Shown here one piece after another: positions 14,644 through 57,489 of a stretch of DNA of 64,000 bases. Under the pieces are notes generated by a model. That model saw nothing but the letters and a program-made list of their open reading frames with translations. It made no database searches and was not told where the DNA came from. How positions within the stretch are numbered: position 1 is the first letter of the stretch; the number at the start of each line of letters is the position of its first letter. Origin of the DNA: Actinomycetota bacterium (GTDB taxonomy: Bacteria; Actinomycetota; Thermoleophilia; Solirubrobacterales; 70-9); NCBI GenBank assembly GCA_018268675.1, contig JAFDWB010000090.1, positions 1 through 64,000 of the forward strand, written 5' to 3'. Both the position numbers and the translations under genes were made by a program.

Positions 14644-14686
14644 GCGTTCGCACTTATCCACAACTGTTGTGGATAAGTGCGAACGC
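14644..14686. repeat. 43-bp palindrome containing two inverted DnaA-box-like 9-mers
   Basis: Perfect 21-bp arms around a single central T. Each arm contains TTATCCACA (14654-14662 and, inverted, 14668-14676), the classic DnaA-box consensus. The outer GTTCGCACTT part recurs in palindromes at 22149 and 57443. It lies 15 bp after the stop of the MBL hydrolase, so it could equally serve as its terminator. Confidence 0.75.
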
Positions 14687-17589: not shown

Positions 17590-18132
17590 ATGACGGGACG
17601 CGGGAGCATCGCCCTGCTGCTGATCGCTGCGGCGATCCTCCTGCGCCCGTGGGACCGGGACCCGATCCGACGCTTGTTACCCCATGGGGAACAAGCGTCG
17701 GCGGTGGGGGCGTCGGAGCGGCTGCGGGGACGGGTGGAGCGGGCCGTGGACGGCGACACGCTGGAAGTGGCGCTCGCCCGCGGGGGGACGGAGACGGTGC
17801 GGGTGATCGGCGTCGACACGCCGGAGACGGTGAAGCCGGACACGCCGGTCCAGTGCTTCGGGCCGCGGGCGTCGGCCTTCGAGCACCGGACCGTCGAAGG
17901 GCGGCGGGTGCGCCTCCTGACCGGGGTCGAACCGCGCGACTTCTACGGGCGGTTGCTCGCCTACGTCTGGGTCGAGGGACGCCCGCGCGAGCGCTTCCTC
18001 GAGGACGAACTGCTCCGCCGCGGCCTCGCCCGCACGCTCACCTTTCACCCGAACGACCGTTTCGCGGCCCGCTTCGAAACACTTGAGCAAAAAGCAGCGA
18101 CTGCCGGCAAAGGGCTCTGGAATGCGTGTTAA
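17590..18132 (+). CDS. Thermonuclease-like (SNase) secreted or anchored nuclease
   Basis: 180 aa. The N-terminal hydrophobic segment RGSIALLLIAAAILL is a signal peptide or anchor. The SNase OB-fold begins LRGRVERAVDGDTLEV, with active-site residues in VRVIGVDTPETV and RDFYGRLLAYVWV and a C-terminal helix GLARTLTFHPNDRF. It hydrolyses nucleic acids outside the membrane. Between signal and domain an inverted repeat is translated in frame (IRRLLPHGEQAS). ATG at 17590 is preferred over GTG at 17584. It follows the aldolase by about 60 bp. Confidence 0.88.
   Translation: MTGRGSIALLLIAAAILLRPWDRDPIRRLLPHGEQASAVGASERLRGRVERAVDGDTLEVALARGGTETVRVIGVDTPETVKPDTPVQCFGPRASAFEHRTVEGRRVRLLTGVEPRDFYGRLLAYVWVEGRPRERFLEDELLRRGLARTLTFHPNDRFAARFETLEQKAATAGKGLWNAC
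17667..17701. repeat. Inverted repeat inside the nuclease gene
   Basis: CCGACGCTTGTT (17667-17678) and AACAAGCGTCGG (17690-17701) flank CCCC-AT-GGGG, giving a near-perfect 35-bp palindrome with one bulged base. It is translated in the linker between signal peptide and nuclease domain, where extra residues are tolerated. Confidence 0.8.
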
Positions 18133-20806: not shown

Positions 20807-22984
20807 TCAACGGGAGGGGGTCTTGGGGACTTCGCGCAGGGGGGCGTTGGCGGTGGTGCAGGCGAGCCGGAGCGGGCCGGTGACCTGCCAGACCGTGACC
20901 GGGCCTTCGCGGAAGAGCGGATGCACGCCACCGGCGCCGCGCAGCCAGCGGGCCTCCGGCGAGGGGATCGGGCTGCCGGGGTGGATGAAGTTGAGGAACG
21001 GCGAGGTGACCAGGTAGTTGATTTCGGCGGCGTTCACGGCGGCGCGGAAGCCGCCGCAGGTGGGGATCGCGTTGAAGGCGCCGTGGGGCCCGGTTTCGCC
21101 CAGGTAGATCACCCGGTTGGAGAGGTCGGGACCGTAGAAGCCGTAGCCGGCGAAGCCCGCGGTCGTCCCGGCCAGCCCGATCCGCGCGCCGGTGACGCCG
21201 CGCGCCCAGCGGTAGGCCTTGTCGAGGCTCATGCCGGGGATCGAGGTTTCGGCGGTGAGGTTGGCGAAGCGGTGGTTCAGGTAGTGGCGCTGGACCGGGT
21301 AGCCCAGCCCCACCGCCGCCACTGCCACCGCCGCGAGCGCGGCGGCCACGAGCCGCCCCGACAGGCCGTCGCGACGGGCGAGCCAGATCAGCGTCGGCAC
21401 CGCGACGAAGACGATCACGAAGGCGAGCGCGAAGACGCGGGCCTTGTCGTGGAGGGCCTGGTCGGGACGATCGGTGATCAGGTAGGTGAGGACGAGCGCC
21501 GCGATGAGTCCCCACTGGCGCTTCGGCCCGTCGAGGAGGCGCGGCAGCGGGACCAGGACGAGCGCGACGAGGAGCGCCGGGATGACGAAGCGGACGTTGA
21601 TCGCGAAGCCGACCGGTTCGCCCTCTGCCCCCGCCGCCCCCAGCGGCGTGACGAGGTAGGCGACCAGGCCGAGCAGCGCGACCCCGCCGAGCCAGCGGAC
21701 CAGCTTGTCGCGGCCGGAGAAGATCGCCAGCAGGCAGGCCGCGACGGCGGCGAGGAGCACCAGCGGCCAGAGCACCCCGAAGGCGTCGTGCAGGCCGGGG
21801 GCGAAGTACTGGCGCCAGATCCCGGTGTCGGTGGCGTAGTGGAGGATGTTGAAGTCGGGGCGGCCTTCCTGCAGGCGTTCCGGGTGGGGCAGGGAGATCG
21901 GCCCGAGCTTCGTCACCTCGGGCAACGGGTTGCCGGCGACGATCAGGTTGCGCAGGTACCAGTAACCGCCACCGACGAGCGCCGGGACGAACCACCAGCC
22001 CGCCGCCTTCCAGCGCCTGCCCGAGGGCGCCAGCACGAGGACCGCGACGCTGAGCGCCCCGGCCATCGCCAGCGCCGTCACCTTCGTGCCCGCCGCCAGC
22101 CCGACCGCGAGCCCCGCCGCCGCCAACGGCCACCCGTAGAGCGCGCGCGTTCGCACTTCTCCGCGTATACCGCGGCTTTCTGCGAACTCATCCGCGGGCT
22201 GGGCGTTCCAGGACTCGACCAGGATCGCGATCCCGGCGAGGAGGAGGCTCGCGGCCATCAGGTCGTTCTTGGCGGCGCCCGGCTCGCGCACGACGAGGGT
22301 GTGGCAGCCGGCGACGATCGCCGCCGCGATCACGGCCGGGACACCGCGCCCGTAGGGCCGCCCGACGCAGTAGGCGGCGAGGAAGGCGACCGCGAGCCAG
22401 CCGAAGTTGACGAAGAGGCTGAGCGTGTCGCGGCCGATCAGGAGGAAGCCGATCGCGTGGAGGAGCTCCGAGTTCTGCGGATAGAACCAGTTGACGAACA
22501 CGGTTTCGATGTGGTGCATCCCGGTCGTCGAGTGCGACTGGACCATGTCGGCGGAGAACGGCATGTGGTACCAGAGCGAGTCGAAGTTGAAGATCCCCGC
22601 GTCGAGGGCGTGCTTCGCCGTCACCGCCCAGTCGAAGACGACGATCGCGACCACGGCGATCGCGACCAGCGAGGCCCCGAGGCCGGGATCGACACCGCGC
22701 GCCGTCTGGCCGCCGCCGTGGCTGGTCGGGACCCACCGGACCGCGAGCGCGACGGCGAGGGCGGCGAGGATCAGCCACCCCGCGTAGAGCGCTCCGAACG
22801 TCCCCAGGGTCTCGCCGAGGACGGTCAGCACCCCGAACCCGACCACCCCCTCGACCAGGCGCGCCGGCGCGCCCCGCCAGCCCGGCAGCAGGCGCTCCCG
22901 CAGCGCCCAGGCGGCGTACCCGAGGGCGGCCGCGAGGACGGCGAGCTGGGCGGCCCCCAGGAGGTAGGAGCCGAGGCTAGGCAC
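20807..22984 (-). CDS. Large polytopic membrane protein, glycosyltransferase-like
   Basis: 725 aa from GTG with about 13-15 membrane helices. The loop after the first helices contains FNFDSLWYHMPF and VFVNWFYPQNSE, an acidic-aromatic loop typical of GT-C enzymes (GT39/GT83), which move sugars from polyprenyl-phosphate carriers outside the membrane. A periplasmic C-terminal domain follows (IGLAGTTAGFAGYGFYG). No family name is certain. About residues 265-277 an in-frame palindrome inserts AESRGIRGEVR in a cytoplasmic loop. Last gene of the mfd-surA-eno-divIC string, 6 bp after divIC. Confidence 0.7.
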   Translation of the reverse strand: MPSLGSYLLGAAQLAVLAAALGYAAWALRERLLPGWRGAPARLVEGVVGFGVLTVLGETLGTFGALYAGWLILAALAVALAVRWVPTSHGGGQTARGVDPGLGASLVAIAVVAIVVFDWAVTAKHALDAGIFNFDSLWYHMPFSADMVQSHSTTGMHHIETVFVNWFYPQNSELLHAIGFLLIGRDTLSLFVNFGWLAVAFLAAYCVGRPYGRGVPAVIAAAIVAGCHTLVVREPGAAKNDLMAASLLLAGIAILVESWNAQPADEFAESRGIRGEVRTRALYGWPLAAAGLAVGLAAGTKVTALAMAGALSVAVLVLAPSGRRWKAAGWWFVPALVGGGYWYLRNLIVAGNPLPEVTKLGPISLPHPERLQEGRPDFNILHYATDTGIWRQYFAPGLHDAFGVLWPLVLLAAVAACLLAIFSGRDKLVRWLGGVALLGLVAYLVTPLGAAGAEGEPVGFAINVRFVIPALLVALVLVPLPRLLDGPKRQWGLIAALVLTYLITDRPDQALHDKARVFALAFVIVFVAVPTLIWLARRDGLSGRLVAAALAAVAVAAVGLGYPVQRHYLNHRFANLTAETSIPGMSLDKAYRWARGVTGARIGLAGTTAGFAGYGFYGPDLSNRVIYLGETGPHGAFNAIPTCGGFRAAVNAAEINYLVTSPFLNFIHPGSPIPSPEARWLRGAGGVHPLFREGPVTVWQVTGPLRLACTTANAPLREVPKTPSR
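22149..22187. repeat. Imperfect palindrome inside the large membrane-protein gene
   Basis: Outer arms GTTCGCA / TGCGAAC and inner arms CCGCG / CGCGG around TATAC. Both sides resemble the intergenic palindrome at 57443 (GAGTTCGCAGAAA and GTTCGCA.TT.TCC), so it is a copy of the same element translated in frame. Confidence 0.65.
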
Positions 22985-33400: not shown

Positions 33401-33433
33401 GCGCGGGAAGCTGTCGCCGAAGCACAAAGGACG

Positions 33434-33483
33434 GGCCGTCTCGGCCACGACCCTGGCGGGCTGTGGCCGTGGCCGAGACGGCC
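33434..33483. repeat. Inverted repeat, 16-bp perfect arms
   Basis: GGCCGTCTCGGCCACG and CGTGGCCGAGACGGCC around an 18-nt loop, 34 bp after the ABC1-kinase stop. It could terminate that transcript, though no T-run follows. Confidence 0.7.
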
Positions 33484-33653
33484 GGGTCTGTGGGGAGAGG
33501 AAGGGCCCGCACGGCGCGCAGGAACACACGGCCCGGTGGGGACGGGACGCCGGGTGTGGAGGACGGGTCGCGAGAGCGGGACGGGAGTGGGCACGGGTCC
33601 GTCCCGAGGTGGGCCCACATGACGAAGACGTCGAGAAGGCCGGGACCTTGTCC

Positions 33654-33781
33654 TCGTCCGGGAGGACGCCCTCCGTCCAGCTGTTCCTTATGGCGCCCTG
33701 GCGACCATAAGGAACAGCTGGACGGGGTCGGGCCAGGAACGGGGAGGTCCGTCACTGTTCCTCCCGTCTTCTTCAGACGCT
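33654..33781. repeat. About 128-bp dispersed intergenic repeat, copy 2, with a central hairpin
   Basis: Same layout as 14480-14606: CGTCCAGCTGTTCCTTATGG / CCATAAGGAACAGCTGGACG arms of 20 bp (33674-33693 and 33705-33724, 11-nt loop), then GGAGGTCCGTCAC and TTCCTCCCGTCTTC. Arms remain perfectly paired although the loops differ between copies, which indicates selection or gene conversion on pairing. Confidence 0.75.
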
Positions 33782-33785
33782 TGAC

Positions 33786-33837
33786 ACGCGCTGCAAGGAT
33801 TCAGGTCGCTATAGCGACCTGAATCCTTGCAGCGCGT
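33786..33837. repeat. Perfect 52-bp palindrome without loop
   Basis: 26-bp arms meeting at GCTATAGC, beginning ACGCGCTGCAAGGATTC. With no unpaired loop it is a candidate cruciform or a two-fold protein-binding site rather than an ordinary RNA hairpin. Confidence 0.85.
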
Positions 33838-33958
33838 CCCGTGGTCTCGGTCCCGGGCCTTCACGGGCGCTCCTCTCACAAAGGACGGTCACGGAAAGGA
33901 CGATCACGGGAGTCCGACTTTGTGACAACCCTGAGGCCGCTCCCCCACGGACCCCTCA

Positions 33959-34018
33959 CGTCCTGGGCGTCTCATGGCGGCCACAGCCTGCCTGGGTCGC
34001 CATGAGACGCCCAGGACG
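33959..34018. repeat. Inverted repeat, 21-bp perfect arms
   Basis: Left arm starts CGTCCTGGGCGTCTC, right arm ends GACGCCCAGGACG, with an 18-nt loop. It is intergenic and unrelated in sequence to its neighbours. Confidence 0.8.
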
Positions 34019-34076
34019 CAACTCGGACGGCCACCCGCGCCCCGAACCTCGTCGTCCTTTCCCCTCCTCGCCCCAC

Positions 34077-34117
34077 AGCTGTTCCTTATGCCGACCAGTC
34101 CGGCAAAAGGAACAGCT
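34077..34117. repeat. Third AGCTGTTCCTTATG-family palindrome
   Basis: AGCTGTTCCTTATGCCG and CGGCAAAAGGAACAGCT pair with one mismatch around a 7-nt loop. It shares the core of the copies at 14501 and 33674 but not their flanks. The right arm runs into the gdpD stop codon, so it may also serve as its terminator. Confidence 0.7.
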
Positions 34118-34847
34118 AACCGTCGGGGTCGGGGTCGAGGCGCTGGAAGAGGCGGGGGTCGTTCGAGACCAGGCCGGTGACGCCCAGGTCGAGGAGCTTG
34201 CGCATGCGGGGCTCGTCGTCGACCGTCCAGGCGATCAGCTCGACGCCGCAGCGCCTGCAGATGCCGGCGAGGCGGGGGCTGACCAACGGGTGGTAGACCC
34301 ACATCGCGAAAACATCGAATTGCGGGAGTTTCTCGGCCGCGAGGCCGGGGAGTTGGAGGCGCATCGCGTAGAGGGCCGCGCGGAGGGCCGGCTTCGCCCA
34401 CGGCCGCCGCGTCCAGTCGCGGCTCGTCTTCGGGAAGGTCCAGCCGCGGCGCAGCTTCGGTTCCAGTTCGAGCACACGTTTCAGCGTGTGCATCTCCATC
34501 GTCGAGATCATCGCCCGGTCGATCAGGTCGCGCTCGCGGAGCGCCTCGACGAACTCCTCCTCGCGCCCCGGCAGCTTGACGTCGAGGTCGATCTCGACCC
34601 GGTCGAGGGGCGGCTCGAGGAACGCGTCGAGGGCCTCGGTCAGCTTCAGCGGCGTGCGGCTGTTCGCGTCCTCCCAGTCGTGGGCGACGATCAGCGGGTG
34701 GCGCTGCGCCGGCGGCAGGTGCGCGTCCGCCAGCCACACCACGTCGAACTCGATCGTGTCGACGCCCGCCTCGACCGCGGCCCGGAAGCTCTCCAGCGTG
34801 TTGCCGGGCGCGATCAGGTCGGCCCCCTTGTGGCCGACGCGCCGCAC
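34116..34847 (-). CDS. Glycerophosphodiester phosphodiesterase family protein
   Basis: 243 aa. A GDPD TIM barrel: [19 protein letters not shown] (the His-Lys/Arg-Gly start and E of the family), [24 protein letters not shown] (second catalytic His) and [10 protein letters not shown]. It hydrolyses deacylated phospholipids to sn-glycerol-3-phosphate and alcohols. No signal peptide, so cytoplasmic. Four bp after prs in the same direction, hence the end of a glmU-prs-gdpD operon. Confidence 0.88.
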
Positions 34848-41180: not shown

Positions 41181-41196
41181 CGGGGCGCTCCTCGGG

Positions 41197-41268
41197 GCGG
41201 GGGTGTCGTGACACCCTCCGGACGCGCCTTCGGCGCTGAGTGTCCGGAGGGTGTCACGACACCCCCGC
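41197..41268. repeat. 72-bp palindrome covering the ispE stop codon and the dedA/pap2 leader
   Basis: Perfect 27-bp arms (41197-41223 and 41242-41268; outer part GCGGGGGTGTCGTGACACC) with an 18-nt loop that holds GCGCCTTCGGCGC. Each arm also contains the small palindrome GTGTCGTGACAC. The right arm encodes the last ispE codons and its TGA. It may terminate or attenuate transcription before dedA/pap2. Confidence 0.85.
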
Positions 41269-42147
41269 CAAGCAGACGATCGCGTCATTGCGGTCGAGGG
41301 AGGTGGTTGCTGCCTCGGCTTCGGAAAGGGTTGGGAACAAGGCGACCGCGGTCGGGCCGGAGCCGCTCAGGAAGACGGCGGGGGCTCCGGTATCGCGGAG
41401 GGCGGCGAGGGCGGTGGCGATGTCGGGGCGGAGGCTGATCGCGGCGGGCTCGAGGTCGTTGATCAAGAGGTCGGCGTAGGCGAGGGGCGAGGCGCCTGCG
41501 CCGGCGGCGGTGCGCAGGCGGCCGGCGATCTCCTCCAGCTCCTCCGGGTCCCGGCCGAGCCCCAGCCGGTCGGCCTCGGCGAAGACCGCCGCGGTCGAGA
41601 GCCCGCCGCCCGAGGGCAGCAGCACCGCCGCGTGCTCCGCGGGCGCCGGCAACGGCTCGACCCGCTCCCCCGCCCCCCGGACCAACGCCAGCCCCGGCCG
41701 CAGCTGCGAAGGCACGTCCGCCCCCAACTCCGCCGCAAGCGCCGAAAGCCCGGCAACACCTACCGTCACGGCTGAAGCATTTTGGTTGTCAGGGGACCAA
41801 AATGCTTCAGCCGGGAAGGTGGTGGCGGGGGACGCGAGGCGCAGGACGGCGGCGGCGTCGGCCGAGCCGCCGCCGAGGCCCGCGGCGACCGGGGTGCGCT
41901 TCTCGATCTCGATCCGCAGCGGCGGCGCGTCCCAGCCGCGCTCGCGGAGCTTCGCCAGTGCCCGGGCGGCGAGGTTCTCGCCCTCGACCCCCGGGCAGAC
42001 GACCTCGTCGCGCTCCGCCTCCTCGACCCGCAGCAGGTCGGCCAGCGCCAGCGGCTCGAAGAGCGAGCACAGCTCGTGCAGGCCGTCGGGGCGAGGGCCG
42101 CCGAGGTAGAGGCCGAGGTTCAGCTTCGCGGGGGCGCGGACCAGCAT
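41254..42147 (-). CDS. ispE: 4-diphosphocytidyl-2-C-methyl-D-erythritol kinase
   Basis: 297 aa. GHMP kinase of the MEP isoprenoid pathway: APAKLNLGLYLGGPRPDG, the ATP loop PVAAGLGGGSADAAAVLRL and the C-terminal VFLSGSGPTAVALFP. Between AAVLRL and LSALAAELGADVP about 16 residues more than usual are present; they are encoded by a 43-bp palindrome (AEAFWSPDNQNASA). The C-terminal codons and stop come from a second palindrome. Last housekeeping gene of metG-tatD-rsmA-ispE. No clear ribosome site before the ATG. Confidence 0.93.
   Translation of the reverse strand: MLVRAPAKLNLGLYLGGPRPDGLHELCSLFEPLALADLLRVEEAERDEVVCPGVEGENLAARALAKLRERGWDAPPLRIEIEKRTPVAAGLGGGSADAAAVLRLASPATTFPAEAFWSPDNQNASAVTVGVAGLSALAAELGADVPSQLRPGLALVRGAGERVEPLPAPAEHAAVLLPSGGGLSTAAVFAEADRLGLGRDPEELEEIAGRLRTAAGAGASPLAYADLLINDLEPAAISLRPDIATALAALRDTGAPAVFLSGSGPTAVALFPTLSEAEAATTSLDRNDAIVCLAGVS
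41770..41812. repeat. 43-bp palindrome translated in frame inside ispE
   Basis: GGCTGAAGCATTTTGGT (41770-41786) and ACCAAAATGCTTCAGCC (41796-41812), perfect 17-bp arms, 9-nt loop. AT content is much higher than in the surrounding ispE sequence, which marks it as an insertion. Confidence 0.85.
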
Positions 42148-57442: not shown

Positions 57443-57489
57443 GTGAGTTCGCAGAAACCCACACATAGCGTGGATAACTGCGAACTCAC
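57443..57489. repeat. GTTCGCA-family palindrome
   Basis: GTGAGTTCGCAG and CTGCGAACTCAC (12-bp arms) with an inner CCAC/GTGG stem. One side carries TTATCCAC, as in the DnaA-box-like element at 14644, and the other side GAGTTCGCAGAAA, as in the in-gene copy at 22149. Confidence 0.75.

What the first reader, a model, noticed from the sequence alone, without database searches (positions are those of the whole stretch)
41770..41812. In-frame palindromic insertion in ispE
The 43-bp palindrome is AT-richer than the gene around it and encodes AEAFWSPDNQNASA between two helices, exactly where this enzyme is about 16 residues longer than well-known IspE proteins. The reading frame is kept. This resembles the palindromic elements of Rickettsia that insert into coding genes, which I am not aware of being described in this lineage.
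Basis: partly seen in the sequence, partly recalled or inferred. Interest (0 to 1): 0.8.

Follow-up and report, generated by a model that had tools for sequence, protein, structure and literature searches.

The report
In-frame mobile palindrome in ispE
An actinobacterial lineage carries many families of dispersed DNA palindromes, and one copy sits in frame inside the enzyme gene ispE, adding a floppy loop to the protein; it resembles the Rickettsia elements that insert into genes, but lies in an unrelated phylum and lacks the transposase that usually moves such repeats.

Summary
Window 41770-41812 is a 43-bp palindrome (17-bp perfect arms, 9-nt loop), in frame in ispE. It is one of 17 copies of a dispersed family (F1); the other 16 are intergenic. 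The lineage is Solirubrobacterales genus 70-9 (Actinomycetota). The six palindrome-bearing species form one clade (100% support), and all carry an in-frame insertion at the same ispE loop. Every other genus genome whose site could be read, and the family outgroups, have a short linker. The palindromes differ between species: F1 (G000, G006), F2 (G003, G008, G011), F3 (G007). F2 copies also sit in frame in murC, murT and other genes of G008. At murC two species carry an unrelated palindrome at the same place and one is empty; at murT close relatives are empty. AlphaFold2 gives a confident IspE whose only disordered part is the insert. At least nine palindrome families occur in sampled clade DNA, mostly intergenic. 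No Y1/RAYT transposase was found in nine genomes, and REP tags are at background. Best reading: non-autonomous REP/RPE-like palindromes tolerated in flexible loops, an untagged, RAYT-free variant in a new phylum. How they move, and how families replace each other, is unresolved.

The parts
41770..41812 (.). F1 palindrome core (arms 41770-41786 and 41796-41812, loop 41787-41795)
41758..41823 (-). approximate net 66-bp in-frame insertion relative to empty ispE sites (edges uncertain by a few codons; includes weak outer arms 41762-41769 / 41813-41820)
41254..42147 (-). ispE, 4-diphosphocytidyl-2-C-methyl-D-erythritol kinase, 297 aa
22142..22194 (.). second in-gene palindrome of the window (F2-like, core 22150-22186), in frame in a 725-aa gene at 20807-22984 (-) with no Pfam match; falls in a variable loop, so no clean empty site
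14644..14686 (.). intergenic F2 palindrome
57448..57484 (.). F2 palindrome core between convergent genes
33434..34117 (.). convergent intergenic region with five palindromes of several families; about 737 bp between aligned flanks here, about 60 bp in G009 and G019
41196..41269 (.). 74-bp nested palindrome at the ispE end of the neighbouring gene; same family at the orthologous place in G003, G008, G011; missing in G006 and G007

Best explanation
The palindrome is a copy of a short, non-autonomous, dispersed repeat that inserted in frame into ispE. Shown: it belongs to a family, the site is empty in outgroups, the frame is kept, and the encoded segment is predicted to be a disordered loop between two helices. 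Inferred: copies land widely, and selection removes those that break genes, leaving intergenic copies (especially between convergent genes) and the few that fall in frame in flexible loops. Inferred: such loops are hit or overwritten more than once, which is why the same ispE loop carries F1, F2 or F3 in different species. Most likely the hairpin itself, exposed as single-stranded DNA, is what an unidentified enzyme moves; a RAYT-type Y1 transposase was not found. The insert probably has no benefit for IspE.
For: 17 F1 copies in the own genome and at least 33 F2 copies. All six clade species occupied, all readable outgroups empty, clade support 100%. In-frame F2 copies in MurC, MurT, a GNAT protein, a flavin-oxidoreductase-like protein, a membrane protein and a GT2/TPR protein of G008, seven of 39 copies counting ispE. 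Clean empty MurT sites in G000, G006, G007. MurC: F2 in G008 and G011, another palindrome in G003 and G006, empty in G007. AF2 mean pLDDT 91.3, below 50 only at residues 112-128. Nine families with 3 or more members in sampled clade sequence. Inner F2 stem pairs exceed independence at several positions, e.g. 0.82 against 0.46 and 0.95 against 0.73.
Against: Movement was not observed and no enzyme was identified. No clear target-site duplication was found (and the ispE, murC and murT comparisons). The genomes compared are draft assemblies, most of them metagenome bins. G007 had no strong palindrome in 18 kb, so abundance is uneven in the clade. The F2 copies were found by similarity to a query, so the conservation of TTCGCA/TGCGAA is partly by construction.
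Confidence: 0.82

Rival explanations
1. One insertion in the ancestor of the six species, after which the palindrome was overwritten by each genome's own copies through conversion or template switching at the hairpin.
For: All six species occupied within a few codons. G000 and G006 share flanks of the insert, yet all 5 of 32 arm differences from the F1 consensus are in G006 and none in G000, with 14% nucleotide divergence in the rest of ispE. The G008 ispE core is identical to another copy in G008.
Against: F1, F2 and F3 arms share little sequence, so homologous conversion between families is hard to picture. At murC, unrelated families and an empty site coexist. The 5-against-0 count is only suggestive.
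Confidence: 0.35
2. The palindromes are bidirectional transcription terminators or RNA-stability hairpins, and the ispE copy is a regulatory hairpin kept for its RNA structure.
For: F2 copies are enriched between convergent genes (17 of 33 in G000) and rare inside genes; strong RNA fold; covarying inner stem.
Against: The ispE copy lies mid-gene; its arms have decayed in G006; shared primary sequence across dozens of sites is not needed for a terminator; no Rfam match.
Confidence: 0.1
3. The segment is an ordinary lineage-specific loop that happens to be palindromic.
For: It lies in a loop of variable length.
Against: Same sequence family at 16 other places, five other species with palindromes or decayed palindromes at the same loop, chance expectation 0.0008 per 64 kb.
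Confidence: 0.02

Closest known systems
Rickettsia palindromic elements (RPE)
   Same: Several palindromic repeat families, inserted in frame in unrelated genes, proteins apparently still functional; literature: ten families, 44 integrations in R. conorii (PMC10969869).
   Different: RPEs are given as about 150 bp; these are about 45-70 bp, in Actinomycetota, mostly intergenic, and no sequence relation was shown. Different families occupy the same gene site in sister species.
REP elements (GTAG and CGTC superfamilies), with or without RAYT
   Same: Dispersed hairpins, preference for 3' ends and convergent genes, occasional intragenic copies in several phyla; one reported pair of different REPs at about the same site in recB of two Xanthomonas species (PMC3733652).
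   Different: Published stems are 5-13 bp, here about 17-24 bp; no tag above background; no Y1 transposase in nine genomes.
Coding palindromes of Nematomorpha mitochondria
   Same: Long inverted repeats kept inside protein-coding genes and gained or lost between species (PMC6649704).
   Different: Those are mitochondrial and much longer; the passages read do not describe dispersed family copies of this kind.

Membership tests
Rickettsia palindromic elements | palindromic repeat inserted in frame in unrelated protein-coding genes | tested here: met
   ispE, murC, murT and others
Rickettsia palindromic elements | several distinct families in one genome | tested here: met
Rickettsia palindromic elements | length about 150 bp (PMC10969869) | tested here: not met
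   about 45-70 bp
Rickettsia palindromic elements | sequence relation to a known RPE family | not tested
   no RPE sequences were compared
GTAG/CGTC REP superfamilies | unpaired GTAG or CGTC tag at one end | tested here: not met
   GTAG 6 and CGTC 12 occurrences over 98 copies and both ends, 16-nt flanks; F2 only
GTAG/CGTC REP superfamilies | stem 5-13 bp | tested here: not met
   F1 and F2 stems about 17-24 bp; published range from PMC3733652
GTAG REP mobilised by RAYT | Y1 (PF01797) transposase in the genome | tested here: not met
   none in G000 or eight other genus genomes; control genomes rang; the genomes are incomplete
GTAG/CGTC REP superfamilies | preference for convergent or unidirectional intergenic regions | tested here: met
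   G000 F2: 17 convergent, 12 unidirectional, 3 divergent
MITE | target-site duplication and terminal repeats of a parent insertion sequence | tested here: inconclusive
   no clear duplication in occupied/empty pairs; no parent element sought systematically
Known structured RNA | match to an Rfam family | tested here: not met
   only tRNAs in the window

The most novel reading that the evidence does not exclude
A RAYT-free system spreads long palindromes in an actinobacterial clade and serially replaces one palindrome family by another at the same in-frame sites of essential genes, so that each species carries its own family there.
Probability: 0.35. Interest if true: 0.8.

Novelty: new variant of a known kind. 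Interest (0 to 1): 0.62.

Why it matters
In-frame palindromic elements are best known from Rickettsia, an intracellular lineage, and how they spread is unclear. This lineage is unrelated and offers sister species, empty sites, decayed and fresh copies, and different families at one site, so insertion, replacement and tolerance by proteins can be compared directly. It also gives a natural set of insertions in enzymes of essential pathways (IspE, MurC, MurT) for testing loop tolerance.

Tried and rejected
Y1/RAYT as the mover: no hit in nine genomes. Tagged REP: tags at background. Viral vehicle: the F2 pattern had no match in IMG/VR, and three 17-base F1 matches lacked the second arm. Known RNA family: none. 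Papers on such repeats in Thermoleophilia or Solirubrobacterales: none in the held library. A 13-kb concatenated query was prepared but not sent; single genes were used instead. Target-site duplications: none found in the pairs compared.

Full report
The palindrome is real. At 41770-41812 two perfect 17-base arms flank a 9-base loop inside ispE, on its minus strand. Such a hairpin is expected about 0.0008 times in 64 kb of this composition. It folds far better than shuffles and is 51% GC in a gene otherwise 76% GC.

It is a repeat. The own genome (4.2 Mb, 95 contigs) holds 17 copies of this family, F1, counting ispE. With a simple codon-based gene caller, the ispE copy is the only one inside a gene; the others are intergenic or touch gene ends. 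A second family, F2 (GTGCGTTCGCAGTT...AACTGCGAACGCAC), has at least 33 copies, 17 of them between convergent genes and one inside a gene of this window at 22150-22186. That in-gene copy lies in a loop that also varies in G004, so it has no clean empty site. Clustering strong hairpins from sampled clade DNA gave nine families of three or more members.

Lineage and phylogeny. A tree of five neighbouring proteins, with the insert masked, puts G000, G003, G006, G007, G008 and G011 in one clade with 100% support; relations inside it are unresolved.

The ispE site. All six clade members carry an in-frame insertion of 16 to 22 residues at the same loop. G004, G005, G009, G019 and G031 have the short linker, and G026, G012 and G023 also lack the insert. 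In G001 only a C-terminal fragment of IspE was found, and in G002 and G010 none, so those sites could not be read. The inserts are F1 in G000 and (decayed) G006, F2 in G003, G008 and G011, and F3 in G007. The G008 and G011 ispE cores are closest to copies in their own genomes; for G003 the nearest is a tie with G000.

Other genes. Seven of 39 F2 copies found in G008 are inside genes, all open through the element: MurC, MurT, ispE, a GNAT-domain protein, a GT2/TPR protein, a flavin-oxidoreductase-like protein and a membrane protein without a Pfam match (MurT, flavin oxidoreductase and membrane protein are named from sequence knowledge). At MurC, G011 has a decayed F2, G003 and G006 have an unrelated 70-bp palindrome, and G007 and the outgroups are empty. 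At MurT, G011 has a decayed F2, while G000, G006, G007 and the outgroups lack it; G005 has a longer linker without a palindrome. Survival bias explains why the in-gene copies seen are in frame.

Protein effect. AlphaFold2 gives a confident IspE (mean pLDDT 91.3), and the only stretch below 50 is residues 112-128, between helices 93-103 and 134-141. This fits a tolerated, unstructured insert. Activity was not tested.

Mechanism. The Y1 transposase family that moves REPs elsewhere had no match in nine genus genomes, while control genomes rang. REP tags were not enriched. Inner F2 stem positions covary above independence, which shows that pairing is maintained or regenerated, not why. Whether ispE was hit repeatedly or hit once and overwritten is open. 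Clade-wide occupancy and the pristine G000 arms beside decayed G006 arms favour overwriting; the mix of families and an empty site at MurC favours repeated hits.

Abundance is lineage-specific. In the region around ispE, G000, G006 and G008 carry about 2 to 4 strong palindromes per 10 kb, against none in G004, G009 and G026 and few in the other outgroups; G007 had none at this threshold and part of G011 is masked.

Comparison with known kinds. RPEs share the in-frame habit but are longer and rickettsial. A survey of REPs already reports intragenic copies in several phyla, one pair of different REPs at about the same recB site, and the same intergenic preference. So the kind is known; the phylum, the long untagged stems, the missing RAYT and the six-species site history are what is new here. 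No paper on this lineage was found in the held library.

Noticed in passing
window 33401-34138: Convergent intergenic region of about 737 bp with five palindromes of several families; G009 and G019 have about 60 bp there, so palindromes may contribute to the larger genomes of this clade.
   Followed up: partly
window 41196-41269: 74-bp nested palindrome next to ispE, at the orthologous place in G003, G008 and G011 with changed but still complementary arms; missing in G006 and G007.
   Followed up: partly
L154 (G008), gene 1300-2709: One gene holds two palindromes: an F2 copy and a CTCTGTCCTTTGT...ACAAAGGACAGAG hairpin.
   Followed up: no
L013, L014, L023, L029: Four F1-like copies share extra flank (CAGGATGCCC ... 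AGTTCACAGCGAG.AATTTGACCGGT) and a different right arm, suggesting a longer subfamily or a second element.
   Followed up: no
window 17667-17701: Palindrome CCGACGCTTGTTACCCCATGGGGAACAAGCGTCGG near the start of a weakly scoring predicted gene; may be intergenic.
   Followed up: no
F2 copies, position 16 of the 57-nt alignment: One stem position is G or C on either side independently, paired in 58% of copies, exactly as expected without pairing.
   Followed up: no
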